A stretch of DNA of 64,000 bases from Siphonodentalium dalli (Eukaryota; Mollusca; Scaphopoda; Gadilida; Siphonodentaliidae), in the NCBI GenBank assembly GCA_032622095.1, contig CP136063.1, positions 30,568,987 to 30,632,986 of the forward strand, given 5' to 3'. The notes under the pieces were generated by a model. That model worked only from the letters and a program-made list of their open reading frames with translations. It was not told the origin of the DNA and searched no databases. Shown in pieces: positions 7,026 through 63,205 of this stretch. The translations under genes and the position numbers were made by a program. Positions within the stretch are counted from its first letter, which is position 1. Every line of letters begins with the position of its first letter.

Positions 7026-7583
7026 TTGCAAGAGATACGAAAACAATTATTTTCTGGGCGACTCTCTAGATGTACATGGCCTGATGGAGTTATACGACAT
7101 ATATCATGGACATGTATTATAGAATTATACTATAAAGGTATACGACATATATCATGGACATGTATTATAGAATTATACTATAAAGGTATACGACATCTAT
7201 CATGGACATGTATTATAGAATTATACTATAAAGGTATACGACATCTATCATGGACATGTATTATAGAATTATACTATAAAGGTATACGACATCTATCATG
7301 GACATGTATTATAGAATTATACTATAAAGGTATACGACATATATCATGGACATGTATTATAGAATTATACTATAAAGGTATACGACATCTATCATGGAGC
7401 GGAATGCATTGGAGAATTATACAGAAGTTGTTATCAACTGGGGCGATGCCGACGTTCCGGGAAGGTGACGCTCCCCAGAGGCATGGAGTGGCCGGCCATC
7501 TAAGGTTGGAGGGGCACTCCCGGAAACAGAAAGTCCATGTGTTTCAAACTGTAAATAATGGAAAGGAATCATATCAGAGTTAG
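7026..7583 (+). CDS. Open frame containing a 16-residue repeat, identity unknown
   Basis: The frame is open for 185 codons. It contains six full copies and one partial copy of a 16-residue unit (G-I-R-H-L-S-W-T-C-I-I-E-L-Y-Y-K), because the underlying 48-bp repeat keeps frame. The stretch after the array (nt 7400-7583) has higher GC and no repeats. The frame is probably a by-product of a period divisible by three; I have no family match. Confidence 0.25.
   Translation: MQEIRKQLFSGRLSRCTWPDGVIRHISWTCIIELYYKGIRHISWTCIIELYYKGIRHLSWTCIIELYYKGIRHLSWTCIIELYYKGIRHLSWTCIIELYYKGIRHISWTCIIELYYKGIRHLSWSGMHWRIIQKLLSTGAMPTFREGDAPQRHGVAGHLRLEGHSRKQKVHVFQTVNNGKESYQS
7090..7398. repeat. 48-bp minisatellite, about 6.4 copies
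   Basis: Near-identical 48-bp units start GGTATACGACATCTATCATG. Units differ mostly at one C/A position (ATATATC versus ATCTATC), giving a Leu/Ile alternation in the open frame. Confidence 0.9.
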
Positions 7584-19100: not shown

Positions 19101-19608
19101 TAATCAAAATGAATATATTATGTCACAACACAGACATAAAAATTTACTAAGGCTAAGGTGTTACTTATACCAACCCCATCCACTGAATAATTATTGTTTT
19201 AAATATAAAAACTTCATGCTAACAACAGCTGTAGATGTATGTTATATTTATATGGACATAAATGTACGTCGTTTAATAAATGGACCCGATATTTACGACC
19301 TATTTTAATCATGCAACAAATTAAAAAATTATTTGCATGTTTTCGTATCTTCGAATTATTGAAAATTATGAAATTAGGACATGTTGCCCACCCACTGAAC
19401 CTCACTTGTGTCTACTTAGTGCCCACGGAACCAAACAGGTAAGGTCATATAGGCAGAAAATTACGGCATACAGCCATACAAACTGATTACCGATCTAATT
19501 TTCCTAAAAAAGGTGATCAGGTCTGGCAAAAGTGAGAATACAGCAACAATAGCTGTATTCAGCTATATATTATACTCTCAAACTGGCTGTATTTGCGCAT
19601 TAAAATTA
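19101..19608. other. Non-coding
   Basis: AT-rich, no gene supported. It leads into the left arm of the TIR element that hosts the LTR retrotransposon. Confidence 0.4.
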
Positions 19609-19743
19609 GGCTACCATATTGTCCGGTCACCCTCAACCAAATCAAAATCGTCGCTTGTGTTCTGACAAAGTGTTGCCTTTTGTTGACAAGGCAATTCTGA
19701 TTTTGTGTGAAAATTTACTACGGTGGTCGATGTCAGTAAATAT

Positions 19744-19974
19744 TGTAGCGGTTTTGGCCTCTTGTTCCACGGAGATCATCCGGAAACCCACGGAGATGTA
19801 TCTACACCACTCGGAACGACTCACGTGACCCGACTCTTCCCGAAGGTGACGTCATCCGGGAATTCACTTCACTTCAACCACAGACTTCAAACCGACGACT
19901 TCGCTCCGCGCTCAAGACTTCTTTCATAGGTAATTTCATTAGATAACATCACTTATAAACCCTAATCATGTTAT
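19744..19974 (+). repeat. 5' LTR (231 bp)
   Basis: Starts TGTAGCGGTTTTGG and ends CATGTTAT. Two substitutions from the 3' LTR (C versus G in CCACNGAG, and C versus T in AAANCCT). The end is not the canonical CA; the boundary was set by the AATAT target duplication. I could not pick a promoter with confidence. Confidence 0.9.
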
Positions 19975-19976
19975 AT

Positions 19977-22185: not shown

Positions 22186-24848
22186 ATGGCAACCAACGGA
22201 GTGGAAATAAATCGTTGCTCGCACGATGAGTTGTGTAAAATAGTAGGAATTTCTGGGGATTCAGCAATGAAGATAGTACTCCATAGGTCACAGAAAGGTG
22301 ATATCAAAAATAGCAAAGAATTGTCAGAGTTACTCACCCCCCCACCTATGTGCCAGAATTAAAGGGCCAATTGACTATGTAACAAGCAAGGGACAAGTAG
22401 CAACCCAGAAGGAGGAGAGCGCAATCAGGGAGTATCCGGAGTTCTCTCTTTCTGATGAGGACTTTCAGGAACCCAAGTATTCCAGCTCTCCAATCACTAC
22501 GAGAGGTAGACAAGAAAGAGAAAGGGAAGAGCATGTGGCCTCTTACAAAAGAGAAACAGATCATATGGCCTCTTTAAAAAGAGAAACACAGCAGAGAGAG
22601 ATAACGGAATATGAAAAGATAAGGCAACAGGAGTACGAAGATCAACGAAGGGAAGATCGAGAACAGGAAGAAAAAGACCTGCGACGTGGGACAATCAGCA
22701 AGGAGCAAGGAGATATCCAACCGAGGGACCAACAGGATAGTCGAGGAAAGGAAATGTCGAGAGTGCGGAAATCGTATGAAGAACAGCAAGGGGACTGGTA
22801 TGACCGCGTAGAAGAGGAAAGACACAAGTGGCAGGGGAAAATAGACAGAATTCGAGAGGATTTCAAACGAGAAATGTACCAAATAGAAAAGGAACTTTAA
22901 ACAAGCTAACAGTGAGGAACAACAGGTAAGAGGAAGTTTGAGGAATGTGCAAGAGGCTCTTAAAAGACAGAAGGAGCAGGTGGAGAGGGATGAACAGAAA
23001 AACAGAAAAGAGTGGGATGAAATATTAGGACAGATGGAGTTGAGGGAAAAAGAAATTTATTCCCTGAAGAAAGAGTTGCTCCAATCTACGGAAGAGAAAA
23101 CACAAGAATGTGAGGCCCTGAGAGAAGAAAAGAGGGCACAGGCTCGAAGCTATGAAGATAAGTTGAGGGACGAGAGAGAAGGGCGCAGGAAAGAGAAGCA
23201 AAGCTATGAACAAGCTAGGGTGGTACCCGAAGTACAAAGACACCCCACCCATTTTCCTCCACCAATCTGGCAACAACCACCATTCCCGTATGGAAACAAT
23301 CAGCAGTACACGTACCCGCCTAACCAGGTGGCGACCCCAGCGATGCAGATGCCACCAGCCACAATACCTCCAGTGACACCAGCGGTACAGGCAGTGGCCG
23401 ATCCAGGGAGACGGGAAAGGGAGCCGGAACGAAACGACAGAAGGGAGAACGAGGAACCAAGGAGATGGGGTGAGGACCGGGAGCAATATAGAGGTGAACG
23501 TAATGACCGGGGAAGATATGATAGAAGGGACAGGATAGGTGTTGAGAAAATACCATCTCGACTAAAGTTCGATGGAACCTCCATGTGGATGGAGTTTGAG
23601 AAGCGATTCGTCCATTTCGCCCAGCGCCAGAATTGGGATGAGGAAGAAAAGAAAGAGAAACTGGTCTGGTGTTTGGAAGGGAAGGCGGCCGAATTCTGCG
23701 CGATGGTCGATAGACAGGATGAAATGTCCTATCAGCAACTTCTGAGGGAACTCCGAAGTAGATATGAGGAACATGATCGTCCTGAGAAGGCCCAGACGGA
23801 TCTAGCAGTGGCCAAACAACATACAGATGAACCTCTAGAGGACTGGGCAGACAGGGTCCAAAAGCTGTCAATACAGGCCTTCAGTGACGCGCCGGGGGCA
23901 GTCCAGCAGAGACAGGCAGTACTAAAGTTCTGCCAAGGACTACTGGACAAGGAAACAGGGCAACATGTTGCCACTTCCGCCCAGCCAACCATTAAGATGG
24001 CAGTGGAAAAGGCGCAACTCTTCCAGCAGACCACGCAGGCAATATACGGGAAGAGACTGAAGAAAGAGGTAAAGGCCACATGGGTAGATTCGGATTCAGA
24101 TTCTGATGGGGCCCAAATCAGCCAAGTGTATAGGCATCGGGACAATAGGGGACGAGGGGATGGAAGAAGGGCTCCCGACTTGGGGGATGGAAGAAGGAAC
24201 AATTCCAGGTATGACCGGAATTGGAGGTCAGAGAGATCTGAGGGTCCCAACAATTCCAGGTATGACCGGAATTGGAGGTCGGAGAGTCCGAAGAACTCCG
24301 GGTATGACCGGAATTGGAGGTCGGAGAGTCCGAAGAAATCCGGGTATGACCGGAATTGGAGGTCGGAAAGTCCAAAGAGCTCAGGGTATGACCAAAATTC
24401 CCGATATAACCGGTCCCGAAAAACAGAAAATGCAAAGCCGACAAATGATTCCACTCCATGGGGCAAGAGTGAAACTACAAGAGATGGAGACACTGCCAAA
24501 AACAGGACGTCCACAAACCAATCATCGGATGTCAACTTAAGGGTGAGCTCACTAGAAAGCACCGTGGGAGGATTGGATACGTCGGTGGGTGAGATGGCAG
24601 CAAACATTAAGAAGCTGATGGGCCTAGTAGAGGAGAAGTCGAGATACAGGAATTATTCCAACTATGGGGACAGATCGAGAAGCCCTTCACCTAGGCGAAA
24701 TGGGGAAATGGTTTGCTACAAATGTCAAAAACCAGGCCACTTTCGCAATAACTGTCCCCAGAATCAACAACAGGAAAGATTCTCAAAGAAAGTATCATTC
24801 AATAAGAACGAGGAGTTAAACGAGAGCGGGTCGTCCATCGAGGCCTAG
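22186..24848 (+). CDS. gag: gag polyprotein of the LTR element (two frame breaks)
   Basis: ATG at 22186 opens M-A-T-N-G-V-E-I. The frame moves +1 within a C7 run (22337-22343) and again at CTT-TAA-A (22895-22901), then is open to TAG 24846-24848. The total is about 885 codons, long for Ty3/gypsy Gag. The first third is a highly charged Arg/Glu/Gln coiled-coil-like region. A Pro-rich patch follows (23230-23390). A retrotransposon capsid domain comes next (about 23545-24040; K-F-D-G-T-S, W-C-L-E-G-K-A-A, L-E-D-W-A-D-R). Then there is a 16-residue repeat region and a CCHC zinc knuckle C-x2-C-x4-H-x4-C at about 24714-24755. Gag packages the RNA into particles. The breaks may be indel errors; the second could also be a programmed shift (see findings). 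Confidence 0.85.
24195..24395 (+). repeat. 48-bp in-frame repeat in gag
   Basis: Four to five copies of a unit encoding Y-D-R-N-W-R-S-E-S-P-K-(N/K/S)-S-G are arranged in tandem just before the zinc knuckle. The Arg/Tyr/Ser-rich composition suggests a disordered RNA-binding stretch. Confidence 0.85.
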
Positions 24849-27220
24849 AAACGACCCGAATCAAAGAAGGCCCAGCCAAAGAGAAAAAGCCTTCAGAACG
24901 TGGAAGCTCCACTATAAGTAGAGAGGGTAATGCACAACCAAGTTGTAGAACTTATAGCCTGGAGGACGAAGAGTTCAATGCATCGATATTCAATGTTGAC
25001 TCTAACCAAACAGGTAGTGAGTTCAAAGGAGTTGTGAGCAAGCCCGGGAACGAGGTAGGTACATCAAAACGCCCTAGCCCAATGGTGAAGCTGGACGATG
25101 CATTGTTACCCGATGCTCAGCCGGCTTACCAGGTGGATAGGGACACGAGTGGGCCTATCTTGATATCTGCCGACGAAAGAAATAAGTGGAGTAGACCAGA
25201 ACCCAGGAAGGAACCGATAGGTGATACGAGGGACAAAATACCCACGGCTGGGAAAGAGGTAAAGCAAGTCGCAGAAAACTCGTGGAAGGGTGACGACGAA
25301 ATCCTATCGGAAGAGAAATCCGAATGGATCATGCCAGCAAACAGCATGAGTGGACCCCCTAGTCAAAGAAAGGCTGAGATCGAAGAGATAGGGAACTCAG
25401 AGGATCACGATGAAACGGATCTGGTAGTTTCCCCGGAATTGGGAATAGCTCAGCCTAGCGAACCATCTCCGGGTACGCTAAACAACGAAGAAGAAACCGT
25501 TGAATTGACGATCCAACAAGTTAGGGGAACCATGCTTTACATCCCAGTAGAGATCAATGGGAGCAGATTGAATGCCGTTGTTGATAGTGGTGCAGAAGTA
25601 ACCATCGTATCGGATAAGGCTTTCAAGAGGCTGGAGAAACAGCCTGACATCCAGAAAAAGGCGAAGATGCATACGGCAGGCAGGAATTTATGCATGAATG
25701 CGTGGATCACCCAGCCGACCAACTTGCTAATAGGGGGAAAAATATACAGCCACCCCTTATATGTTGCTCCCGTGGCCGATGATATGCTGTTGGGGTTAGA
25801 TTTCATGAAAAAACATTCTGCCCATATAGACCTAGACCGGGATATTATCGAATTGGGAGAAATCACTGTCAAGATGGAACGCTTAGGGGATGCTGCCCAT
25901 GATGGACAAATCCAAGTACGAGTTTCAAAGGCGACCGTGGTACCTCCAGGACAGGTGTGCTTGTGCCAGGGTGTCATGGCCGAAAATCTCAAACCATACA
26001 TCCTGGAAGGAACGGAGCATCCTAGTATCATCATTCCGAGAACTGTTCACAGTGCCGGGAAAACCCCAGTGATCTGTCTCGTCAACACTTCAGAGAGATA
26101 TATTAAATTCAAGCGAGGGCAAGTTATCGCCGCAGCATCTGAAGTGGAAGTATTGCGCTGTGACGGCGGCGCCAGTGTATCAGCAGTGCGAGTCGGAACA
26201 GAACCGTACAAAATCCCAGAACATCTGATGGATTTATATAATCGTTCAGCGGAAAATTTAGAGGCAAGCCAGCAGGACGCTCTGGCTCAACTCATAAGTG
26301 AGTACGCTGATGTTTTCGCAATAGACGAATATGATCTGGGGAACTTCACGGCAATGGAACACACTATAGATACCGGAGATGCTCTGCCCATTAAAATGAA
26401 CCTCCGCCGAACACCCGTGGCTTTTGTCAATGAAGAAAAACAGCTGTTGGACAAAATGCTGAGAGCCGGCGTGATTGAACCCAGCACTTCAGAATGGGCA
26501 GCTGCACCAGTACTGATCCGGAAACGGGATGGCAGTATTCGCTGGTGCCTCGACTACCGCGGTCTGAAGTCGGTGACTAAAAAAGATGTCCGGCCCATTC
26601 CCCTGTTCTCAGAATGTGTGGATTTGTTAAGCCAGAAACAGCATTTTAGCCACCTGGATGGAAATTCTGCGTATTGGCAGATTCCCATTCGAGAAGAACA
26701 CCGCCACAAGACTGCATTCCTAACAAAATACGGGACCTTCCATCACGTCCAACTCGCTTTCGGTCTTTGTAACGCGCCAAGTTGCTATTCCAGGGCCATG
26801 AGCCTTGTGCTCCAGGGGTTAAACTGGAATATAGCCTTGGCATTCTTAGACGACGTTCTGGTGATGGCGTCAGATTTTTCTAGCCACGTCGTCAACCTTA
26901 AGAGGGTCCTGGAAAGATTCCGGAAATACCAACTCCGCCTAAAACCCCAAAAGTGTGGATTGTTTCAAAGAAAAACAGAATTCTTGGGGCGAACGATAGA
27001 CGGCCAGGGCATGACGATGACAGATGCCTCCTGCAAGGTCATCGAGGAGTGGCCGACCCCTCGAAATAGCAAGGACGTAGAAAGATTTTTGGGATTGGCA
27101 GGATACCACAGAATGTTCGTAAAGAACTTCTCGAAGCTCGCCGCCCCCTACACCAGTTCACGGGGAAGAATCCAAAATTTGAATGGGGTTACGAGCAAGA
27201 AGAGGCTTTCCTTGCCTTAA
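24806..27220 (+). CDS. pol: pol part 1: aspartic protease and reverse transcriptase
   Basis: The -1 frame has no stop from 24806 to about 27150. A long acidic linker is followed by a retropepsin-like protease with active site D-S-G-A (25583-25594). The RT has L-D-Y-R-G-L (about 26553), H-L-D-G-N-S-A-Y-W-Q-I (26653 on), F-G-L-C-N-A-P and catalytic F-L-D-D (26843-26854). F in place of Y in the YxDD box is seen in some Ty3/gypsy RTs. A one-base loss in the C5 run at 27144-27148, at the junction to RNase H, throws the frame so that it ends at 27220; homologous sequence continues in the next frame. No independent start is needed, since expression would be by frameshifting from gag. Confidence 0.9.
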   Translation, partial: ERGVKRERVVHRGLETTRIKEGPAKEKKPSERGSSTISREGNAQPSCRTYSLEDEEFNASIFNVDSNQTGSEFKGVVSKPGNEVGTSKRPSPMVKLDDALLPDAQPAYQVDRDTSGPILISADERNKWSRPEPRKEPIGDTRDKIPTAGKEVKQVAENSWKGDDEILSEEKSEWIMPANSMSGPPSQRKAEIEEIGNSEDHDETDLVVSPELGIAQPSEPSPGTLNNEEETVELTIQQVRGTMLYIPVEINGSRLNAVVDSGAEVTIVSDKAFKRLEKQPDIQKKAKMHTAGRNLCMNAWITQPTNLLIGGKIYSHPLYVAPVADDMLLGLDFMKKHSAHIDLDRDIIELGEITVKMERLGDAAHDGQIQVRVSKATVVPPGQVCLCQGVMAENLKPYILEGTEHPSIIIPRTVHSAGKTPVICLVNTSERYIKFKRGQVIAAASEVEVLRCDGGASVSAVRVGTEPYKIPEHLMDLYNRSAENLEASQQDALAQLISEYADVFAIDEYDLGNFTAMEHTIDTGDALPIKMNLRRTPVAFVNEEKQLLDKMLRAGVIEPSTSEWAAAPVLIRKRDGSIRWCLDYRGLKSVTKKDVRPIPLFSECVDLLSQKQHFSHLDGNSAYWQIPIREEHRHKTAFLTKYGTFHHVQLAFGLCNAPSCYSRAMSLVLQGLNWNIALAFLDDVLVMASDFSSHVVNLKRVLERFRKYQLRLKPQKCGLFQRKTEFLGRTIDGQGMTMTDASCKVIEEWPTPRNSKDVERFLGLAGYHRMFVKNFSKLAAPYTSSRGRIQNLNGVTSKKRLSLP
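24815..24858 (+). promoter_or_regulatory. Gag-Pol -1 ribosomal frameshift signal
   Basis: The heptamer G-TTA-AAC (24815-24821) is in the gag frame. A 5-nt spacer follows, then stem CGGGTCGT (24827-24834), a 16-nt loop containing the gag stop codon, and the perfect complement ACGACCCG (24851-24858). The pol frame is -1 to gag and opens at 24806, so the two overlap exactly here. GUUAAAC is a known functional slippery heptamer in some nidoviruses. All three required parts are present with normal spacing. Confidence 0.8.
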
Positions 27221-28779
27221 GAGAAGCCCTTAGGACACCCCCGGTTCTTGCTCTACCGACAATAGAGGACCCATTCATACTGGATACGGATGCCTCGGAC
27301 GGGGCGATAGGCGCAGAGCTAATCCAAGTCCAGGAAGGGGTGGAGAAGGTCATTGTGTATGGAAGCATATCTTTGAGTCGGGAGCAAAAGAACTATTGCA
27401 CGACTCGTAAAGAATTACTGGCCGTGGTATTTTTCGCCAGGACGTTCCGGCACTATTTGCTGGGGCGACCTTTTGTGGTGCGAACTGACCACGCCAGCCT
27501 GACATGGCTCCTACGCTTCAAGCACCCCCAAGGCCAGATTGCACGATGGCTGGAAGAACTGAGCCAATACCAGATGACTATTAAGCATCGCCCAGGAGCG
27601 CGTCATCAACATGCAGACGCAATATCACGCCTGGTGGATGAAGATCCTTGTCATTGTTTCAAGGCAGGTGTGATATTAGAAGATTTGCCCTGTGGTGGGT
27701 GCAAATACTGCCAAAGGGCAGAAGAGAAATGGGGAGCATTCATCGACTCGGTTGATGACGTGATCCCCTTGGCTCAAGTCAGGGCACAGTCCGTAAACCT
27801 GGAGCACCAAGTTATGGATGTGACGTGTCCCATGCTGTGGCCATGGGATCCAGGGGGGTCGAGAATGAAAGAACACCGGACGGAAATAAGGGAACTTACC
27901 TTAATTCCCGACTGGGGTTCGGAACTAAGATCCCACCCTACCGTGACCTGTGTTGCGAAAGTGACAAATGGGGAGGAAATCTCCCACCAAGTTGGGGTAG
28001 GTGTTGCGAGAGCAACAATAGGGGAAGTTCAAGGGAACCCCGAATCCGGGTTAATAAAGGTAAGTGCGACAGACTTAGGAAAAGTCCATTTTATCGGTTC
28101 CATTGACATACCCCATATGGAAATTATTACGGTGAGTCAGGTCGTGGCAGAGGCATGCCCTCTTCAACTGTATACGGCTGACGACCTGAAAGAAGCACAA
28201 GGCGAGGACGTGGATTTACACAAAATTATAGAGTGGGTACAACAAAAGAAGGATCCTGAAGAGGGAGAATTATTTAGATGCAGTCCTTGGGTGAAATATC
28301 TGAGGATTAATAAAGATCGCTTGAAGATGAGAGAGGACTCTAGGGCAACCATTCCCTATCGCCATTCTCCATTAAGGAAATCTTCAATGCGCCACTCACC
28401 ATATCCGAGACCTCAGGGGTCAGGGATGGCCCAGCCTTATGAACAGCCCCTTCGAGAACGTCAACGTTCGGTCGCACCCTTTCGATCACATCAGGGCAAC
28501 ATGTCATTGCGGAGATCAAGGTCTTCTCCTTCTCGTAGGAATCCGTCCAGTCTCGACTCGCGAGATATTGGGATTCCTTCAGCTCAGTCTTCTCGTAGGA
28601 ATCCGTCCAGTCTCGACTCGCGAGACATTGGGATTCCCCCGTCTCAGTCTTCCCAGATAGACCCGTCCCGTCTTGACTCCCGGGACAGTGGGATCCATCT
28701 ATCACCTTTCATCTTGCAGAATCCTCCCGTCTCGAATCTCGAGGCTCTGAGGCTTCACCATTATATTCTTCTATTCTGA
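27149..28779 (+). CDS. pol: pol part 2: RNase H, pre-integrase segment, then linker
   Basis: RNase H residues include D-T-D-A-S-D (27283-27300), T-R-K-E-L-L-A (27403 on) and T-D-H-A-S-L (27484 on), as in Ty3/gypsy. The frame then gives H-Q-H-A-D-A-I-S-R, a Cys-rich patch (C-x2-C-x2-C-K-Y-C, about 27690-27714) and a segment near 28156-28340 resembling the helical region that precedes integrase (D-D-L-K-E-A-Q-G, W-V-K-Y-L-R-I). Where the His2-Cys2 finger and D,D,E core should follow, the sequence becomes a Ser/Arg/Pro-rich linker with 60-bp repeats. The frame ends at 28779 because of an apparent one-base loss near 28726-28728; the linker goes on in the frame of the next ORF. Confidence 0.8.
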
Positions 28780-28950
28780 AGAATCCTCCCCGTCTCGAAT
28801 CTCGAGGCTCTGAGGTTGCACCATTAAATTCTTCCATTCTGAGGAATTCGCCCCATCTCGATTCTCGAGATTCTGAGGGCCCATCATCATATTGTTCTGT
28901 TCTGGAGACCCTACCCCGTCTCGAATCCCGAGATTCTGAGGTTTCCAGTT
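28531..28950 (+). repeat. 60-69 bp in-frame repeats in the linker
   Basis: About seven units each contain CGTCTCGA(A/C)TC(T/G)CGAG or a close variant, encoding S-L-D-S-R-D-I-G or R-L-E-S-R-G-S-E. The first three are exactly 60 bp, later ones about 66-69. The repeat motif continues across the frame break, showing that the two frames were once one. Confidence 0.85.
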
Positions 28951-31007
28951 TTAACGTCATGCCATTGACTGGGGGAGCTACGACAGAGATCAATACCTCT
29001 GTTAACTCTACAGATTCTCGGGTAATTCTTCCCATGGAGTTACTGACTGAGGAAGTCAATTCTCTTCCTTCTTTGGAGACCTCTCTTGTTGAACCAGGAG
29101 AGAAGCAGGTTAGCAAGAAAGTTCCATCTCGTAACGACACCAAGTGTCCTCTGTGCGGTCAACCGTCTAAGAAGATGGAACGGCATTGCATGGTCCATCA
29201 TCTCCCTCAAACAGTCTGGGAATTTAGGACAGCAGATCAACCCCAACCGGAAGATTGGGAATTTCTTTTGCTCTTCCTTGCTAAACGTCTTAACTGTAGT
29301 CTCGCGGAGTTGATTGGAAAGTGTAATAACAGCTCCGCAAGGATGCCGTCTTCTAGCATCACACCCGATTGTTTGACCATGATGGCAGAATTTCAGTCTT
29401 TTCTTCACACACAGTATGATTGGCCAGTGGTGGACAAGTTTTCTCTCCATCCCATTAACTCTGTGGCCGTGCTTCTGCACTGGAGACCTCTTTGCAATTT
29501 GCTACTCCAAATTCCCCCGGAGGGACAGAAGAGTTTTCGTAATCTTTGCCCAGGTCGCCTTTGCAATTTTGTAACCAGATCTGGGAAAGCTCGACTGAAC
29601 CAGCAGCATCTGACCGCTGAATTGAACCTGACTAATGTAAAGAAGTCCGATGGAGTACCGATATCCACGAAGAAGAAACCGGTTTATCCGAATCTCCACA
29701 TCCAGATATCAGGCGAGTCTTTTCCACCACCCCATAAACTCCAGATAAGATGCGGACCTCCCCGAACTGTCAGCTGTTCCCCTCCAACTGCAGATCCTGC
29801 GATTTCAACGCTCCCCCCACCTTCCGAGGTTAAGATCAGCCACTCAACAGGTTCTGACAATACTGTTCCACCTGTCCAGCAACCGCCAATCTACACTCCA
29901 GATGCTGTTTCTACAGTTCTGGATCCGGGTGTACTTACTGTGGATGCTGTACTTACAGTTCCGGTTCTCTCGGAATCTCCCACTGGGTCAATGGACACGA
30001 CCCTGGTTCTGGGAAGTGACCCTCCCCTTACACCGGAGGTCAGCGACTCTGCCAACGCGGATAGTATTTTTGGGAGCCCATCAGGCCAGTGGCCTCCCCT
30101 CAGTGTTCCGCAGAATAGGATCAGCCGAATCACTCTTCCTATTCTTCCCCCACCTCGGGATTTTGGGCTAGCTAGAATGGCTGTAGATTCACACTTCCAT
30201 TTGGATCGCTTGCATGATCGTCTTAGAGGCTATCCAAAATTTGACATAGACGACATGCTCCAATATCGACCTTCGCCATTCCCGACGACTCCTATCAACC
30301 TTATAGGTGGAGTGATGATCTTCTGTGATCCATCCACTTACCCGGTTGACATCCGTGTTGATACCCCGTTTAAGACGGCCGTTGGTCTCCATCCGAAGAA
30401 AGCCGGTCTTTATTCATCTTACCATAAACGTCTCGATGAATTGTTTGCGCATCCCGGTACAGTCGCAATTGGCGAAATTGGACTGGACCGGACTGTGGCA
30501 GCTAGCTACTGGGAGCAGCAAGATTCTGTCTTTAGGGATATCGTCAAGTCTGCAGTACTATATCAGAAGCCCATAGTTCTTCATTTAAGAGGTCTTGCGA
30601 AATTCCCTGCTGATGTCTATGCCCGAGGACACAAGATTGTCTCCGACGTCTGTCCTCCTAACCAACTAATTCATCTTCACTGCTTCAATGCTGGCGTGGA
30701 GGAGTTCCAACAGTGGAGCAACTCCTTTCCCCATTGCTACTTTGGTTTTACGGCTGCTGTGACATTCTTCAACGTATCTCAGAAAAGGGCGTTGCAAGCC
30801 ATACCTTCTTCCCGTCTTTTGTTGGAAACAGACTCTCCCTACTTTGGTCAACCTTGGGGAGCCGAAATCAGTAGCCCTGCCTATATTGGAAATGTTGCGC
30901 GAGTCGTATCAGACATCCGGAACGAAAGTCTTCAGGACATCTTGCAAGCAACGATTCTGAATACTAGCCGGTTTTACAGAACACCTGTTCCGGGGAACTT
31001 CCTTTAA
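28677..31007 (+). CDS. Zinc finger plus TatD-family metallonuclease ORF in the LTR element
   Basis: The frame is open from 28677; the first ATG at 28959 gives 682 codons. From that ATG, residues 63-80 form a C2H2-like finger (C63, C66, H76, H80). Residues about 85-250 are unrecognised, and about 260-400 are Pro/Thr-rich. Residues 407-670 are a full-length TatD-family domain. The ligands are all present: D-S-H-F-H (H412, H414), G-E-I-G-L-D (E506), V-L-H-L-R (H542), H-L-H-C-F (H574) and E-T-D-S-P (D625). TatD enzymes are TIM-barrel, metal-dependent DNases (3'-5' exonuclease or AP-site activity in known members; TATDN1-3 in animals). The ORF is uninterrupted, in the element's sense strand, and sits where integrase would be. 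It was probably once fused to Pol through the repeat linker. Whether it is active or used by the element is inference. Confidence 0.85.
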   Translation, partial: LPGQWDPSITFHLAESSRLESRGSEASPLYSSILKNPPRLESRGSEVAPLNSSILRNSPHLDSRDSEGPSSYCSVLETLPRLESRDSEVSSFNVMPLTGGATTEINTSVNSTDSRVILPMELLTEEVNSLPSLETSLVEPGEKQVSKKVPSRNDTKCPLCGQPSKKMERHCMVHHLPQTVWEFRTADQPQPEDWEFLLLFLAKRLNCSLAELIGKCNNSSARMPSSSITPDCLTMMAEFQSFLHTQYDWPVVDKFSLHPINSVAVLLHWRPLCNLLLQIPPEGQKSFRNLCPGRLCNFVTRSGKARLNQQHLTAELNLTNVKKSDGVPISTKKKPVYPNLHIQISGESFPPPHKLQIRCGPPRTVSCSPPTADPAISTLPPPSEVKISHSTGSDNTVPPVQQPPIYTPDAVSTVLDPGVLTVDAVLTVPVLSESPTGSMDTTLVLGSDPPLTPEVSDSANADSIFGSPSGQWPPLSVPQNRISRITLPILPPPRDFGLARMAVDSHFHLDRLHDRLRGYPKFDIDDMLQYRPSPFPTTPINLIGGVMIFCDPSTYPVDIRVDTPFKTAVGLHPKKAGLYSSYHKRLDELFAHPGTVAIGEIGLDRTVAASYWEQQDSVFRDIVKSAVLYQKPIVLHLRGLAKFPADVYARGHKIVSDVCPPNQLIHLHCFNAGVEEFQQWSNSFPHCYFGFTAAVTFFNVSQKRALQAIPSSRLLLETDSPYFGQPWGAEISSPAYIGNVARVVSDIRNESLQDILQATILNTSRFYRTPVPGNFL

Positions 31008-32270
31008 TATTCTCTCCCTCAGTCGGGACCAACCGCCACATAGGCGTTTCTTTGTGTATTATATTGTAATGTTTCAACTAGCCGGACCGATGAAGTAATC
31101 ATCATTCCTGTTTTTCATGGTAGAATTATCATCTTCCCCTTTAGTAGAATTCCTGTATATATTCTGGAACTTCTCTTGAACTAGACGGACCCATCATGAT
31201 TCCTGTTTTAGATAACGTTGGAAACAAATTAATTTGTCAAATGTTTGAGTATTCTTCCATGTATTTCCCCGTAGGTTCACTAAACAAATCTGAGGTGACT
31301 GAATCAAATTGGATAGTATTGTTGGGTGTATGGAAGCAATCACGAGTATCTGTATTGTCTATTTAGTCAGGAAGTAATAATGGGATTCTATATTCATAAG
31401 TTAACATGGTTTAATATAAAGTATTAGATATCACGTAAGTTTGTCAAGTTGAAACCAAACAGACCCCCTATTCTATTTAACACAGAGGTTATTAATCACA
31501 TTAATTCATAAGTAAGCATAATAAATGGTAATTTCCACCTGTCAGCCAAAGTGCGTCTTTCTTGTTCAGTGTCCAGTTCTGTTTCCTCTGTCTTTGGAGA
31601 TACAGGGAGTCCTTTCTACATCCATATTTCGGCCAAGCCCACTGGACATCTTTCTTCACCACACCGCTGTCTTTGTGCTCCATCATGCGGTTGATTGTAA
31701 TCACCAGGGACCGTTGAATTGATGTCCGGAAACTGTCTTTATGCTATTTTTGGCACAGAGCGGCACCTTCGAAATTGTTAATGTCACGCTGTTAAACATG
31801 TTGTCGTTAGTTTTCATCAATCAGAATATGAAATATATATATATTTAGCAGCACAAACACACAGCCGAACACTGAATATATAATTATCAGGATCGGAAAG
31901 TTGACGAAATTGACGAGTCATTTTGACGAAGTTTAGCAACAAAATCCACATTTCCGTCTCCCCGTGTGGTTCGACACTACAACGTCACCAATGAAACAAA
32001 AACAGGACATTGTATTCATGTTTCACATAGTTTATTCTATGCATTAAAGTCACAATCAATGGTTAATCATATTCAACATGTCAGCTGAAATACGTGTTAT
32101 CTTGTTCGCAGTCAGTTCTGTTCGAAAATAACAAGACAGTCAATGACTGTGGGGTCGCTCACCAGACTGCAAAGACTGATAAGACTGGGACTCTGGAGAC
32201 CACAACAGTCAGAACTTTTCATAATCACTTTAAAAGAAGTAGATATCTAAAGAGTTAAATCTAAAACAAC
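31008..32270. other. 3' region of the LTR element, non-coding
   Basis: AT-rich after the TatD stop; no env-like ORF, no integrase. Two similar phrases (about 31540-31600 and 32080-32130, around GTCAGTTCTGTT) suggest an old duplication. Confidence 0.5.
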
Positions 32271-32279
32271 AAATTTGGA

Positions 32280-33210
32280 GTTATGTCCCTGGCCCCGCCC
32301 ACATTTGACCCAGTGACCTGATTTGAACAAATCTGAACCCCAGTCACCCAAGGATCCTTCATACCAAATATGAACCCATATAGCCTGATGGTATTTGAGA
32401 AGAAGTCACTTTAAGAATACTATGGAGGGAAAGAGTTATGGCCCTGGCTTCGCAACTATTTCAAGTAAACTCATTTGAACAAATCTGAATGTGAGTCACC
32501 TAGGGAACATTCACACCAAATATGAAACCATTCGGTCTTATTGTTCTGAAGATGTTTAAAAGAATTACTATGGTGGGAAAGAGTTATGGCCCTGGCTTCG
32601 CAACTATTTGACCCAGTGACCGCATTTGAACAAATCTGAATGAGAATCACCTAGGGAACATCCACACCAAATATGAACCCATTTGGTATTATGGTTCCAG
32701 AGGAGAAGATGTTCAAATAATTGTTGTCGGACGGATGGACGGACAGACGATAGACGGACGAGGAGTGATGACTATAGCTCCGCCGGAGCACAGGTAGGGT
32801 GGCTGTTTGATAATTAAATCTCTTATCTCCGCCCCTATTTGAACAAACGTGAATCCCCATCTATGAGATCCATTCATTTGGTAATTTCAGACATTAGATT
32901 TTAAGAGTTGAACTGAACTGATTTTCCTAAAATGACCCCAAATCTGAAAAAATCTAAACCCAGTCACCGAAGGACCATCCATACCAAACATAATCTAAAT
33001 AGTCCAGATGGTTCTTGAGAAGAAATTGTTTTAAGAATTACTATGGAAGGAAAGAGTTATGGCCCTGACTTCTCACATATTTGACCTGATGAACTCATTT
33101 GAACAAATCTGAATGTGAGTCACCTGGGGAACATCCACACCTAAATATATAAACCCATTTGGTCTTTAATATGTATCTGGAGAAGAAAACAATGACAGAT
33201 GGATGGATGG
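32280..33210. repeat. Dispersed repeat with about 150-bp tandem cores
   Basis: Cores starting near 32283, 32437 and 32578, with another near 33050, share GAGTTATGGCCCTGGCTTCG, CATTTGAACAAATCTGAAT and CACCAAATATGAACCCAT. They are followed by GGACGG-type tracts and CTATAGCTCCGCCGGAG. The same family is at 35285-35820. Tandem cores of about 150-160 bp with a hairpin end resemble the bivalve 'pearl'/Helitron-like non-autonomous elements; that assignment is inference. Confidence 0.65.
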
Positions 33211-33239
33211 GAGAACAGTCTGACATAGAGACTGACAAA

Positions 33240-34770
33240 TTCAATCCAATATACCCCCCAAGTTTTCTTTGCAAAATCAGGGTATAATGAGTTCAACTGG
33301 ATACTGGTGGTTAAGAACATAATATTCGAACAGACAAGCGTGAACATAGTGTCTGACATTTGCAGAATGAGGTCCCCAAAGGGTGAATTTAATGACACAA
33401 TCCTGCAATGCGGGCTAGCATCACCAAATTCACCCTCTGGGGACCTCATTCTGTGTATGCCTCAACTGCTATGGGAGACATAGCATTAGATTGAAGTTCT
33501 CCAGTTAAAGTTGGTGATGTGCACCCATTGGGCACCTCAATTATGCATTTTATATTCACAAATTAGGGGATATAGAAACTAAACAGAAGGGCTAAAGTAA
33601 GTAAAAATGTCAATTTAAGTGCCTATATACTTCCCAGAAGATGAGGCCTAAGCAGAATGAGGACCCTGGCTAGTGTATTTGGTGATGCTAGACTGCTGTG
33701 CAGGGTAGCATAACTAAATTCACCCTCTGGGGACCTCATTCTGCAAATGCCAGATAGAAGACAAATTTAATCCAATATATACCCCCCCCCCCCCATTTTT
33801 CTTTGAATATTAGTCGTATGATTTCATCTGGATAAGTGGTGATTAAAACAATAATATGAAATGGCCAAACCTGAATTTAGTATGTCTGACATATACAGAA
33901 TTAGGTCCCAAAAATGTGGATTTAATGACAATATTCTGTAAGGCAGGCTAGCATCACCAAATTCATCCTCAATCTGATTAGGCCTCAATGGCCAATAAAA
34001 CCAAGGAACAGATTGAAGTCCTACAGTTGAAGTTGGTGATACACACCCATTGAGCACCTCAATTATGCATTTTATCTTCTGCAAATTAGGGGGACATTGA
34101 AACTGAACAGGTGGAAAAAGTGACTAAATCAAACTGTCAATTTGATACTTAGGATACTTCCAAGAAGATGAGGACTAAGCAGAATTAGGTCCCTGGCAGG
34201 TGTATGGTGTATTTGGTGATGCTAGCATGCTGTATGGAATAGCAACACTAAATTCACCATCTGGGGACCTCACTATGTAAATGTCAGACACACTATTTCC
34301 AGACTTGAAGAAATCAAAGCCATTCACAGTATCATTGAATGTCAGTCATTAAATTGCTACAGATATGTTTAGATTAGAATAATACATGTCATCTGGCCAG
34401 TTTATATAATTAACATATATGGCAAACTTTGTATTAAATTGAGAGGTGATATGGCTTGGAAGGGATGTTGGTTGATGGCAGGGTTGGCCCTGGGCCATAT
34501 GGGAGGGGGTGGGTGGGGGGAGGGTGGAATGTTTCCATAATTTCATTAAAGAGTAAAGTTTCATAACTCTGCAGATGTTATATATAATGGTGTCACTTTT
34601 TTTCAAATTTTAAAAAAAGTTTTTAAAAAAATTGTCCCAGAAGATGAGGCCTAAGCAGAATAAGGTAATTGAGGTGTATTTGGTGATGCTAGCCTGTTGT
34701 ATGGGGTAGCAACACTAAATTCACCATCTGGGGACTTCATTCTGCAAATGTCAGACACACTATGTCCAGG
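33240..34770. repeat. About 535-bp tandem units with an inverted GAGGTCCCCAGAGGGTGAAT hairpin
   Basis: Blocks beginning AATCCAATATA at 33243 and 33774 repeat in tandem. Each carries GAATGAGGTCCCCAGAGGGT and its inverted partner ACCCTCTGGGGACCTCATTC around a GATGCTAGC centre (33363-33452 is nearly perfect). Diverged arms recur at 33650-33750, 33895-33970, 34170-34275 and 34655-34750. The hairpin family also occurs at 39425-39620 and 56105-56200. A C13-14 run is near 33782. Confidence 0.7.
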
Positions 34771-35284
34771 CTTGGAGAAATGAACAATGGACTATTCCTT
34801 GTAGACTCTGGTAGTTGTTTAGCTAATGTCATGTCTTGTAATGACAGATGATAAACTGGTCTGAAGCAAGCAGTATTCAGCAAGAGGATCGGGCGACCAC
34901 ACTATGATAAATTGGCTTTTTCAATAATACAGGCTAGAGTGTCCTCTTAAAAATTAATAGTGCATAGCAAAGGGGTGTGAATTATAAAGGGCCATAACTC
35001 TGTTAAAATATATCGGATCAAACCCATATTTTAACTTGATCTGTATATAAGTGTCAAAAATTCATATACCAAATTTGGTGTTGATCAGATGAAAAATGTT
35101 TGAGTAATCCTGTCTTGGATGAATTCTATATCAAAACAAGAGTGGAAGGGGTTAAATAAACAATACCAAAATCCATACAGATGAAGAACATGCTAAGAAA
35201 AATCTAGGTAAGAAATATGAGGCTGTGATGTGTCCTAAACAAAAATTAAAGGTCAAAATGCAAAAATTAAATTTTTTGTTTTTA

Positions 35285-35820
35285 AAGTTATGTCCCTGGC
35301 TCTGCCCCTATTTGACCCAGTGACCCCATTTGAACAAATCTGAACCCCAGTCACCCAAGGTCCCTCAGTACCAAATATAAGCTAATTCGGCCCAACATTT
35401 TTGTAGAAGAAGTCATTGTAAGAATTACTATGAGTTATGGCCCTGGTTTCTCAACTAATTGACCGGGTGACTTCATTTGAACAAATCTGAACACCAGTCA
35501 CCAAAGGACCCTCCATACCAAATATTAGCTAAATCGGCACAATGGTTATGGACAAGAAGTTGTTGTAAGAATTACTGTGGAGGAATAGAATTATGGCCCT
35601 GGTTTCGCAACTATTTGACCCAGTGACCTCATTTGAACAAATCTGAATGAGAGTCACCTAGGGAACATCCACACCAAATATGAACCAATTTGGTATGATG
35701 GTTTCAGAGGAGAAGATGTTTTTTTAAAAAGTTTACGGACAGACGGACAGACGGACGGACGGACGGACGAGGAGTGATGACTATAGCTCCACCGGAGACT
35801 TTGTCTCAGGTGAGCTAATA
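35285..35820. repeat. Second copy of the GTTATGGCCCTGG repeat, with terminal hairpin
   Basis: Three cores of about 150 bp are followed by GACGGACGGACGGACG and CGAGGAGTGATGACTATAGC. The terminal hairpin runs TAGCTCC...(A/G)GGTGAGCTA to 35817. It is inserted in, or part of, the LTR element's 3' region. The hairpin end matches the TAGCTC...GAGCTA end of the element at 58380-58775. Confidence 0.65.
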
Positions 35821-36966: not shown

Positions 36967-37197
36967 TGTAGCGGTTTTGGCCTCTTGTTCCACCGAGATC
37001 ATCCGGAAACCCACGGAGATGTATCTACACCACTCGGAACGACTCACGTGACCCGACTCTTCCCGAAGGTGACGTCATCCGGGAATTCACTTCACTTCAA
37101 CCACAGACTTCAAACCGACGACTTCGCTCCGCGCTCAAGACTTCTTTCATAGGTAATTTCATTAGATAACATCACTTATAAATCCTAATCATGTTAT
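36967..37197 (+). repeat. 3' LTR (231 bp)
   Basis: Same length as the 5' LTR with two substitutions. It is followed by AATAT, the target duplication. Confidence 0.9.
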
Positions 37198-38050
37198 AAT
37201 ATTCTGGGGACTATTTTCTGCAAATGCATTCATCAACTATTTACTAACTTAAAAAAAGAGGGGGGGGGGGGGGCGTTAGAATGGTGTACGTATACCAAGC
37301 ATTTACAATTACATGTACATACCACTAGCGGTTTGTGAGCGATACTGGTAATTATTCATAACGGTATATACAGATATTGTGCGGCATATTACAAATGTAT
37401 ATGGCACAACATAGGGACAACTGAAATGAAAATGCGACTTATATACTTTCTGAAATATTTCAAACATGAAGTCCTGGTCGTTAGTCAGAACTATTCAATC
37501 TGTTTTGGAGGGAAAATATATGTGTGAAAAGTTACTAAACATAACATTGGTATTTGTATTTTCGCGGTTCGACATACATGTACCCGGTATACGTTTCCGT
37601 ATTTTTGGAGAGAGACAGCTCAAGCAGTGAGTGCAACTCGCTCGGTTAAACTCTGGCTAGAGATGTTCCCCTTTTTACCTGTTTTAACGCACCAACCAAA
37701 CTGCGTTTTAGCAGCATCATATTGATACTTCCGGGAATGATTAAGATGTTCCATCTTTGGTGATAAATATTTTATTTAATGTACCGGGTATTGTTCAAGG
37801 TATTCCGCATTGCATAAGAGATTTATTAACCGTTATGACCGACATCGACCGCCGTAGTAAGTTTTCACACATAATCACCATCGCCGTGTCGACAAAAGGC
37901 AACACTTTGTCAGAACACAAGCGATGATTTTGATTTGGTTGAGGGTGACCGGAGAATATGGTAGCCTAATTATGATGCGCAAATTAGCGCTTCTAGTTTA
38001 TTATCGAAAAACAGCCATAGAATTGAATATTTCTCAAACCAGTTGGTGGT

Positions 38051-47547: not shown

Positions 47548-48170
47548 AGAGAACTGTAACAACGTAAAGGCAGTTATCCTCCATAAATATATGATAGAGA
47601 CCGGAGAACTGTAAAAACGTAAAGGCAGTTATCCGTCATAACTATATGGTAGAGACCGGAGAACTGTAACAACGAAAAGGCAGTTATCCTTCATAACTAT
47701 ATGGTAGAGACCAGAGAACTGTAACAACGTAAAGGCAGTTATCCTTCATAACTATATGGTAGAGACCAGAGAACTGTAACAACGTAAAGGCAGTTATCCT
47801 TCATAACTATATGGTAGAGAACTGTAACAACGAAAAGGCAGTTATCCTTCATAACTATATGGCAGAGACCAGAGAACTGTAACAACGAAAAGGCAGTTAT
47901 CCTTCATAACTATATGGTAGAGAACTGTAACAACGAAAAGGCAGTTATCCTTCATAACTATATGGTAGAGAACTGTAATAACGAAAAGGCAGTTATCCTT
48001 CATAACTATATGGCAGAGAACTGTAACAACGAAAAGGCAGTTATCCTTCATAACTATATGGTAGAGAACTGTAACAACGAAAAGGCAGTTATCCTTCATA
48101 ACTATATGGCAGAGACCAGAGAACTGTAACAACGAAAAGGCAGTAATCCTCCATAACTATATGGCAGAGA
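47548..48170. repeat. 48/57-bp minisatellite, about 12 copies
   Basis: Units contain GAACTGTAACAACGAAAAGG, CAGTTATCCTTCATAACTAT and ATGG(T/C)AGAGA. Longer units carry an extra CCAGAGAAC-type insert, shorter ones do not. The 48-bp form keeps frame, so short periodic ORFs appear on both strands. Confidence 0.9.
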
Positions 48171-48544
48171 CCTGGCTGTTTGGAGAATTCCCCATTTCGT
48201 CTTGGAGCGTCTTTAGGTAGGCGACCAGGACGAATAACGACGTCAAGGGTAAGAATTCTTTAACTGATACAGACTTATTTGATTTCAAAACAAATACAAA
48301 TACAGGAATTTGAATACACAGAAAGTTTTTAATAGGAGCATGTTTAATAAACCAAAAGTTTTTCAGATATACATGTAGTCCCAGATATACATGTAGTTGA
48401 TAAATGTGCATGCCTTGCATTCTCCAATATATCTGCCACATTGTCAAAGGTAATCAATCATAAAGACAGTCACTACTTGTTGCCAACAAGCCATATTTTC
48501 GACTATATCCTGAAAAGTTACCCATAATTCTGTTGTGGATAAGG

Positions 48545-48990
48545 AGTCCATATTACTTTACTGTGTATATAATGCTACTAAGGCTTTACTGTGTATACAA
48601 TGCTACTAAGGCTTTACTGTGTATATAATGCTACTAACTGCTTTACTGTGTATATAATGCTACTAACTGCTTTACTGTGTATATAATGCTACTAAGGCTT
48701 TACTGTGTATATAATGCTACTAACTGCTTTACTGTGTATATAATGCTACTAAGGCTTTACTGTGTATATAATGCTACTAACTGCTTTACTGTGTATATAA
48801 TGCTACTAACTGCTTTACTGTGTATATAATGCTACTAAGGCTTTACTGTGTATATAATGCTACTAAGGCTTTACTGTGTATATAATGCTACTAACTGCTG
48901 TACTGTATATATAATGCTACTAACTGCTTTACTGTGTATATAATGCTACTAAGGCTTTACTGTGTATATAATGCTACTAACTGATATATA
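48545..48990. repeat. 28/29-bp minisatellite, array 1
   Basis: About 15 copies of CTTTACTGTGTATATAATGC plus TACTAA(CTG or GG). The sequence following it (48980-49125) is shared with the region after array 2 at 63200-63345, so array and flank move or duplicate as one unit. Confidence 0.9.
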
Positions 48991-61479: not shown

Positions 61480-63205
61480 GAGTAACTGCTTTACTGTATA
61501 TATAATGCTACTAACTGCTTTACTGTGTATATAATGCAACTAACTGCTTTACTGTATATATAATGCTAGTAACTGCTTTACTGTATATATAATTCTGCTT
61601 TACTGTATATATAATGCTAGTAACTGCTTTGCTGTGTATATAATGCTACTAACTGCTTTACTGTATATATAATGCTAGTAACTGCTTTACTGTATATATA
61701 ATGCTAGTAACTGCTTTACTGTATATATAATTCTGCTTTACTGTATATACAAGTGCACCGCTGGGCGGAGGTAACGCCCCCGACTGTACAACCAGAGAGG
61801 ATTTTTCTTATTTATGTGCAAATGCTTATTAAATGGCACTTTGTAAAGTTATGTTATTCATGAGTAAACAATCCAACATCAAGTTATCATCTGGAAACCA
61901 AAAAAAGTAGCAGAAAACATGAATTTTCTAAGTCCAAAAAGGGGCGTAACTCTGGAATAAATGGGCGGACGAAACCGCAGTTATGGGGAAATCTTGTCCC
62001 CCCGGCTGGTCTATTAGCATACCAAAGATCAACTGAATTGAGTTCGCGAAACCAAAGTTATGAGTTGAAACGTTCGTACGGACGGACGGAAGGACGGAAG
62101 GCTCCACTATATACCCCCAAATCTCCATCGGAGATCGGGGGCATAATAATGCTAGTAACTGCTTTGCTGTGTATATAATGCTACTAACTGCTTTACTGTA
62201 TATATAATGCTAGTAACTGCTTTACTGTGTATATAATGCTAGTAACTGCTTTACTGTATATATAATGCTAGTAACTGCTTTACTGTGTATATAATGCTAC
62301 TAACTGCTTTACTGTGTATATAATGCTACTAACTGCTTTACTGTGTATATAATGCTACTAACTGCTTTACTGTGTATATAATGCTACTAAGGCTTTACTG
62401 TGTATATAATGCTACTAACTGCATTACTGTGTATATAATGCTAGTAACTGCTTTACTGTGCATATAATGCTACTAAGGCTTTACTGTGCATATAATGCTA
62501 CTAAGGCTTTACTGTGTATATAATGCTACTAACTGCTTTACTGTGTATATAATGCTACTAAGGCTTTACTGTGTATATAATGCTACTAAGGCTTTACTGT
62601 ATATATAATGCTAGTAACTGCTTTACTGTATATATAATGCTACTAAGGCTTTACTGTGCATATAATGCTACTAAGGCTTTACTGTGTATATAATGCTACT
62701 AACTGCTTTACTGTGTATATAATGCTACTAAGGCTTTACTGTGTATATAATGCTACTAAGGCTTTACTGTATATATAATGCTAGTAACTGCTTTACTGTA
62801 TATATAATGCTACTAACTGCTTTACTGTGTATATAATGCTACTAACTGCTTTACTGTATATAATGCTAGTAACTGCTTTACTGTATATATAATGCTAGTA
62901 ACTGCTTTACTGTATATATAATGCTAGTAACCGCTTTACTGTGTATATAATACTACTAACTGCTTTACTGTGTATATAATGCTAGTAACTGCTTTACTGT
63001 GTATATAATGCTACTAAGGCTTTACTGTGTATATAATGCTACTAACTGTATATAATGCTTGTAACTGCTTTACTGTGTATATAATGCTACTAACTGCTTT
63101 ACTGTGTATATAATGCTACTAACTGCTTTACTGTATATATAATGCTACTAACTGCTTTACTGTATATATAATGCTACTAAGGTTTTACTGTGTATATAAT
63201 GCCAA
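61480..63205. repeat. 28/29-bp minisatellite, array 2
   Basis: About 45 copies of the same unit as at 48545-48990, with GTGTATATAA and GTATATATAA variants and CTACTAA or CTAGTAA ends. Interrupted at 61752-62145 by a dispersed repeat. Downstream flank 63206-63345 is shared with array 1. Confidence 0.9.
61752..62145. repeat. Dispersed repeat inserted in the minisatellite
   Basis: It starts GTGCACCGCTGGGCGG and contains a core (AAGTCCAAAAAGGGGCGTAA). It ends with GGACGGACGGAAGGACGGAA and a hairpin ATACCCCCAAATCTCC / GGAGATCGGGGGCAT. The array resumes immediately after, so both boundaries are visible. Confidence 0.75.

What the first reader, a model, noticed from the sequence alone, without database searches (positions are those of the whole stretch)
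28156..31007. LTR retrotransposon in which a zinc-finger TatD nuclease replaces the integrase core
Seen: pol runs protease, RT, RNase H and the short pre-integrase segment. It then passes through a repeat linker into a C2H2-like finger and a complete TatD domain with H412, H414, E506, H542, H574 and D625. No His2-Cys2 finger or D,D,E core exists in any frame I could follow between 28340 and 36966. Known: Ty3/gypsy pol ends with integrase, and TatD proteins are metal-dependent DNases of housekeeping type. Inference: a host TatDN-like sequence was captured and kept open while gag-pol in the same copy has breaks. It may act on cDNA ends, on host DNA at insertion, or be a passenger. I do not know of a described element with this layout.
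Basis: partly seen in the sequence, partly recalled or inferred. Interest (0 to 1): 0.88.

Follow-up and report, generated by a model that had tools for sequence, protein, structure and literature searches.

The report
Retrotransposon third gene encodes TatD nuclease
The jumping gene in this window did not swap its integrase for a TatD nuclease; it lost its integrase in a one-off deletion, but intact relatives in the same animal genome carry a normal integrase plus an extra third gene that encodes a well-preserved TatD nuclease.

Summary
The TatD domain is real, complete and inside an LTR element (LTRs 19744-19975 and 36967-37198, 230/232 identical). "TatD replaces integrase" is wrong. Sister copies in the same 2.2-Gb genome have gag, then pol with integrase and a PHD finger, then a separate third ORF (open frames 859-1491 aa) ending in a C2H2 finger and TatD. 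The window copy lacks about 3.85 kb (integrase, PHD, start of ORF3); of 40 scored genomic matches to the junction only the window spans it. The real finding: at least ten Ty3/gypsy-type families of this genome carry a TatD ORF3; in four of the nine scanned with Pfam it also holds a Tpt1/KptA RNA 2'-phosphotransferase domain. Finger and TatD metal ligands are invariant in 11 aligned sequences. In young copies TatD is under strong purifying selection (dN/dS 0.09; linkers 0.71-0.76). TatD and integrase trees show the same four groups, so the two are inherited together. ORF3 most likely processes nucleic-acid ends during replication (inferred). Bdelloid rotifer LTR elements with an ORF3 exonuclease of another fold are the known parallel. 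New variant of a known kind. Other species could not be searched.

The parts
19744..19975 (+). 5' LTR, 232 nt; 4-nt target duplication ATAT just before it (19740-19743)
   Evidence: 230/232 identical to the 3' LTR; ATAT is 1.5% of flanking positions, so weak by itself
22277..24848 (+). gag in two overlapping frames (22277-22900 and 22887-24848), CCHC knuckle; gag frame broken
24806..27220 (+). pol: aspartic protease and RT
   Evidence: gag-asp_proteas 5e-12, RVT_1 2e-23
27070..28336 (+). pol: RNase H and start of the pre-integrase piece, in another frame than RT
28335..28336 (+). Deletion junction: about 3.85 kb of the full copy (integrase zinc domain and core, PHD finger, start of ORF3) is missing here
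28337..31007 (+). Remnant of ORF3 (repeat linker, finger, helical block, linker, TatD); frame change in the linker at 28677-28779
28529..28943 (+). 60/63-nt tandem repeats coding the repeat linker
29145..29201 (+). C2H2 finger, invariant in 11 aligned sequences
29202..29543 (+). Conserved helical block after the finger, no known family; fold not resolved
30180..31004 (+). TatD nuclease domain, HxH type, all metal ligands kept
31675..35816 (+). Extra 4.1 kb relative to copy A1 in the 3' non-coding part, rich in repeats
36967..37198 (+). 3' LTR, 232 nt; ATAT follows at 37199-37202

Best explanation
The window holds a defective copy of a Ty3/gypsy-type LTR retrotransposon. Intact families of this lineage have three genes: gag; pol (protease, RT, RNase H, integrase and a C-terminal PHD finger); and ORF3, where other elements carry env. 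ORF3 encodes a C2H2 finger and a C-terminal TatD metal-dependent nuclease, in some families preceded by a Tpt1/KptA domain. In this one copy a deletion removed integrase, PHD and the start of ORF3 and so put TatD next to RNase H. Shown: architecture, uniqueness of the deletion, conservation, selection, matching trees. Inferred: ORF3 acts on nucleic-acid ends or RNA-DNA hybrids made in the element's own replication (for example clearing RNA remnants or blocked 3' ends of the cDNA), the finger helps to bind the substrate, and Tpt1 acts on phosphorylated ends. The confidence given is for architecture, deletion and a selected element gene together; for the proposed substrate it is about 0.4.
For: Full copies: integrase-PHD, then a TatD ORF. 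Junction spanned by 1 of 40 scored matches. Ligands and finger invariant in 11 sequences. TatD 25 synonymous to 10 non-synonymous changes in 8 copies, p 1.7e-9; dN/dS 0.09 among 7 copies. 56 of 80 integrase matches have a listed TatD 2.0-8.0 kb downstream, and one of the other 24, opened, has one too. Same four groups in the TatD and integrase trees. Identical LTR pairs in A2, B3 and G. TatD and Tpt1 activities: PMC10085689, PMC12709183, PMC6582358 (passages).
Against: No enzyme activity, expression or particle data. 23 integrase places without a listed TatD were not opened. LTRs were not fetched for C, D, E, I, J, K and M. A2 has no clear target duplication. TatD against linkers is not significant with the 7 full copies alone (Fisher 0.12). 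One genome only. The CD group is weak in the TatD tree (83/77).
Confidence: 0.85

Rival explanations
1. Counter-defence or repair: ORF3 undoes host damage to element RNA, primer tRNA or cDNA. Tpt1 removes 2'-phosphates left by host RNases or caps 5' ends; TatD cuts abasic or damaged cDNA ends.
For: KptA works in RNA repair in phages and is rare in eukaryotic viruses (PMC9503650, passages); TRPT1 modifies 5'-phosphate ends (PMC6582358, passages); human and bacterial TatD are AP endonucleases (PMC10085689, passages). Tpt1 is in 4 of 9 scanned families.
Against: Five of nine scanned families have TatD without a Pfam Tpt1 match; no RNA ligase was seen in the ORFs scanned. The selection data do not tell this from the best explanation.
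Confidence: 0.3
2. ORF3 is mainly a nucleic-acid binding or packaging protein and TatD catalysis is secondary.
For: Long low-complexity linkers and an invariant finger.
Against: All TatD metal ligands are invariant in 11 sequences and the Tpt1 R-H-R-R residues are kept in 4 of 4, which binding alone would not demand.
Confidence: 0.12
3. TatD is a passenger without use to the element.
For: Captured sequences occur in retroelements; the source of this TatD is unknown.
Against: Purifying selection in young copies, ten families, and co-inheritance with integrase.
Confidence: 0.05
4. One reading: TatD replaced the integrase core, and the element inserts or processes its cDNA with TatD instead.
For: The window copy has TatD and no integrase, near-identical LTRs and a possible ATAT duplication.
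Against: The junction is unique to this copy (1 of 40); sister copies have H2C2, rve and PHD.
Confidence: 0.01

Closest known systems
Bdelloid rotifer LTR retrotransposons (Vesta, Juno) with enzymatic ORF3 (PMC5408684, passages)
   Same: Extra non-envelope ORF3 besides gag and pol; in some a 3'-5' exonuclease (DEDDy) with intact active site; relatives cluster apart from cellular homologues.
   Different: DEDDy or GDSL fold, not TatD or Tpt1; that paper reports no significant departure from neutrality, here TatD is under strong purifying selection.
Ty3/gypsy (Metaviridae) LTR retrotransposons
   Same: LTRs, gag, pol in the order protease-RT-RNase H-integrase; RT-RNase H closest to Ty3 among solved structures (E 8.7e-74).
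   Different: C-terminal PHD finger in pol and a TatD ORF3.
Orchid Ty3/gypsy elements with an m6A demethylase domain (PMC9289625, search listing only)
   Same: A nucleic-acid enzyme domain added to a Ty3/gypsy element.
   Different: Other enzyme, other hosts.
TATDN2/TATDN3-type (class II, HxH) TatD nucleases (PMC10085689, passages)
   Different: Encoded by a retroelement, joined to a C2H2 finger and in some families to Tpt1.
Tpt1/KptA/TRPT1 RNA 2'-phosphotransferase (PMC6582358, passages)
   Same: Pfam PF01885 with E 7e-32 to 7.6e-48; R-H-R-R residues in 4 of 4.
   Different: A domain of a retrotransposon ORF3 that also holds TatD.

Membership tests
Ty3/gypsy LTR retrotransposon | pol order protease-RT-RNase H-integrase | tested here: met
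   A1 and B1 pol; the window copy itself lacks integrase
Ty3/gypsy LTR retrotransposon | RT closest to Ty3-type RT | tested here: met
   Best solved match Ty3 RT-RNase H, E 8.7e-74; no RT tree with reference clades was made
Ty3/gypsy LTR retrotransposon | LTRs with 4-6 bp target duplication | tested here: met
   LTR pairs in the window, A1, A2, B1, B2 (5' one split), B3, G; 4 bp in window, B1, B3 and, if the LTR ends one base earlier, G; none in A2, unclear in A1
Ty3/gypsy LTR retrotransposon | tRNA primer binding site after the 5' LTR | tested here: inconclusive
   TGGCGACGA follows the 5' LTR in the window and G; no tRNA compared
TatD nuclease, class II | HxH, Glu, His, His and Asp metal ligands on a TatD barrel | tested here: met
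TatD nuclease, class II | Nuclease activity | not testable with these tools
Tpt1/KptA | PF01885 domain with R-H-R-R | tested here: met
   C, D, E, H; no Pfam match in A, B, I, J, K; M not scanned
Bdelloid-type enzymatic ORF3 | DEDDy exonuclease or GDSL esterase in ORF3 | tested here: not met
   Pfam finds TatD, with or without Tpt1, in ORF3 of the nine families scanned; it works like such an ORF3 at most in a broad sense

The most novel reading that the evidence does not exclude
A large and old lineage of animal Ty3/gypsy elements carries a dedicated nucleic-acid repair or processing gene (Tpt1 - C2H2 finger - TatD, or finger - TatD) as its third gene, kept by selection because replication, or escape from host attack on element RNA and cDNA, depends on it. 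It would be the first LTR-element use of TatD and of Tpt1 that I know of.
Probability: 0.55. Interest if true: 0.82.

Novelty: new variant of a known kind. Interest (0 to 1): 0.7.

Why it matters
Few LTR elements are known to keep extra enzymes. One under strong purifying selection, in at least ten families of one genome, points to a step of the replication cycle, or a host attack, that gag and pol alone do not meet, and it gives a protein that can be tested. It also warns that TatD genes annotated in animal genomes may be retroelement ORFs: here 55 of 166 listed TatD places follow a related integrase within 12 kb, both lists being capped.

Tried and rejected
Rejected: TatD as integrase replacement. 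Rejected: chance ORF. Rejected: a pol-TatD fusion as the family layout; L030 (copy G) is a second fusion but by another deletion, which keeps integrase and lacks PHD, Tpt1 and finger. Led nowhere: viral contigs with single queries (no relative of TatD or RT) and with the alignment (three weak TatD matches, 23-27% identity); Rfam and tRNA scans of the window (none). The finger-helical block folded alone reached pLDDT 53 and was not searched; in the larger model (mean pLDDT 65) the listed matches cover the TatD part only, so the fold of that block is open. A count of PF01885 in the genome did not complete. Searches of the large protein database could not be made. Papers: searches list no LTR element with TatD or Tpt1; two searches showed only 3 of 10,050 and 12 of 2,013 papers, two of three. 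The 14 papers that hold both TatD and retrotransposon I judged by listing, and one of them, PMC6962438, by passages. The library is open-access only.
Full report

Where it lies. The window is part of a 2.23-Gb genome in nine contigs. The TatD ORF gave 73 matching stretches (58 candidates scored of 845). Besides the window, ten are near-full copies at 95-96% with no stop, in open frames of 1005-1207 aa; older copies at 88-89% carry stops.

Integrase is not replaced. I fetched up to 30 kb around each of six copies. A1, A2, A3, B1 and B2 have a pol frame (1612-1681 aa within the fetched piece) that ends in a PHD-like stretch, then a separate frame of 1118-1207 aa that ends in TatD. Pfam finds H2C2, rve and PHD in pol, and TatD alone in ORF3, of A1 and B1, the two scanned. 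Aligned to A1, the window matches up to A1 position 3357 and resumes at 7204: 3.85 kb are missing, with 2 nt of overlap at 28335-28336. A 200-nt probe over the junction has 40 scored matches (46 candidates); only the window spans it, 39 match one half. The pol-TatD neighbourship is thus a private deletion. It need not have happened before insertion; the data do not say. Two other copies show separate deletions: in L030 (G) one 2078-aa frame joins integrase to TatD without PHD, Tpt1 or finger, and in B3 (LTRs identical, 196 nt) a 1078-aa frame begins like gag and ends in TatD.

The actual finding. Eight more families (C, D, E, H with its relative G, I, J, K, M) share the plan. Where one search lists them (C, D, I, J, K, M) their integrase is 53-56% identical to A1; B is at 70%. 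Pfam finds rve above its cut-off in C, D, E, G, H, J and K, and PHD in C, D, E, H, I, J and K; of I only the end of rve was fetched, and M rests on the integrase and PHD-like matches. The open frame of ORF3 overlaps pol by 8-26 nt (D, H) or follows after 27-93 nt (C, E, J, K), about 20 nt after the PHD match (M), 0.6 kb (B), 1.0 kb (I) or 1.5 kb (A). With A and B there are ten families. ORF3 of C, D, E and H also has a Tpt1/KptA domain (E 7e-32 to 7.6e-48) with the R-H-R-R residues described for TRPT1 (PMC6582358, passages; residues checked). Pfam shows none in A, B, I, J and K; M was not scanned. In 11 aligned sequences the two Cys and two His of the finger and all TatD ligands are invariant.

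Integrase and TatD travel together. A1 integrase gave 80 main matches (4811 candidates at first look, so a lower bound). 56 of them have a TatD or 49 between 2.0 and 8.0 kb downstream on the same strand. Of the 24 others one was opened, and it has a TatD ORF3. In the TatD tree the element sequences form one clade, 100/99, apart from six other TatD sequences of the genome; L042 and L043, which I had labelled host, fall inside it, and their surroundings were not examined. Groups AB (100/99), CD (83/77), EGH (99/97) and IJK with L042-L043 (98/97) recur in the integrase tree (100/100, 100/100, 100/100, 99/98) (M is in neither). This fits one acquisition followed by common descent; how the groups join is not settled.

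Selection. Among seven full A copies mean dN/dS is 0.09 in TatD, 0.40 in the finger-helical part and 0.71-0.76 in the two linkers; for the window against the seven it is 0.11, 0.24, 0.91 and 0.45. Counting changes once over eight copies, TatD has 25 synonymous and 10 non-synonymous (p 1.7e-9 against neutrality), the linkers 17 and 33 (Fisher 9e-4). With the seven full copies alone TatD is 12 to 5 (p 4e-5), but the contrast with linkers is not significant (0.12). LTR pairs of A2 (225 nt), B3 (196) and G (279) are identical. So TatD was under selection in elements that moved recently. Four-bp duplications flank the window (ATAT), B1 (GCAC), B3 (TTAT) and, if its LTR ends one base earlier, G (TATA); A2 has none and A1 is unclear. 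LTRs were not fetched for C, D, E, I, J, K and M.

How it may work. HxH TatDs are class II; human and bacterial TatDs are 3' exonucleases and AP endonucleases (PMC10085689, passages). TATDN2 cuts RNA in R-loops (stated in PMC12709183, passages). TRPT1 ADP-ribosylates 5'-phosphorylated RNA and DNA (PMC6582358, passages). KptA serves RNA repair in phages and is rare in eukaryotic viruses (PMC9503650, passages). A retroelement makes RNA-DNA hybrids, nicked cDNA and primer remnants, so an enzyme for nucleic-acid ends fits. This step is inference; repair or counter-defence is the main rival.

Known or new. Bdelloid LTR elements carry DEDDy exonuclease or GDSL ORF3s (PMC5408684, passages), so an enzymatic ORF3 is a known kind. 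Orchid Ty3/gypsy elements took up an m6A demethylase domain (PMC9289625, search listing only). A survey of mollusc LTR elements (PMC6238403) has no word beginning with PHD, ORF3 or nuclease in its main text. The paper searches (limits told under Tried and rejected) listed no element with TatD or Tpt1. Hence: new variant of a known kind.

Noticed in passing
L027, L028, L029, L031: ORF3 of families C, D, E and H carries a Tpt1/KptA RNA 2'-phosphotransferase domain ahead of the finger and TatD, with R-H-R-R residues kept.
   Followed up: partly
L030 (C5:240190772-240197772): A second, separate deletion joins integrase to TatD in one open frame of 2078 aa, without PHD, Tpt1 or finger; its LTRs are identical over 279 nt.
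   Followed up: partly
L024 and L026 (copy B3): A short copy, about 5.8 kb, with identical 196-nt LTRs and TTAT duplication, whose 1078-aa frame begins like gag and ends in TatD; it may be a non-autonomous derivative.
   Followed up: no
L036-L039: Intronless TatD ORFs of about 300 aa with a Cys/His-rich N-terminus, outside the element clade; their nature is unknown.
   Followed up: no
window 31675-35816: 4.1 kb absent from copy A1, with palindromic units of about 100 nt (33362 on) and 147-nt tandem units (35286-35681): nested insertions.
   Followed up: no
window 19591-19737 and 37838-37984: Inverted 147-nt arms, 91% complementary, on either side of the element; a different repeat.
   Followed up: no
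window 47548-48983 and 61481-63202: Tandem arrays with units of 48-55 nt and about 29 nt; the 29-nt type lies in both places.
   Followed up: no
L019 and L020 (copy B1): Copy B1 is flanked by a direct pair of 1137 nt, 99.9% identical, as if it sits inside a larger LTR element.
   Followed up: no
L010 (gag of A1): Gag begins with a helix-hairpin-helix match (PF12836, E 4.3e-8, above its cut-off), unusual for gag as far as I recall.
   Followed up: no
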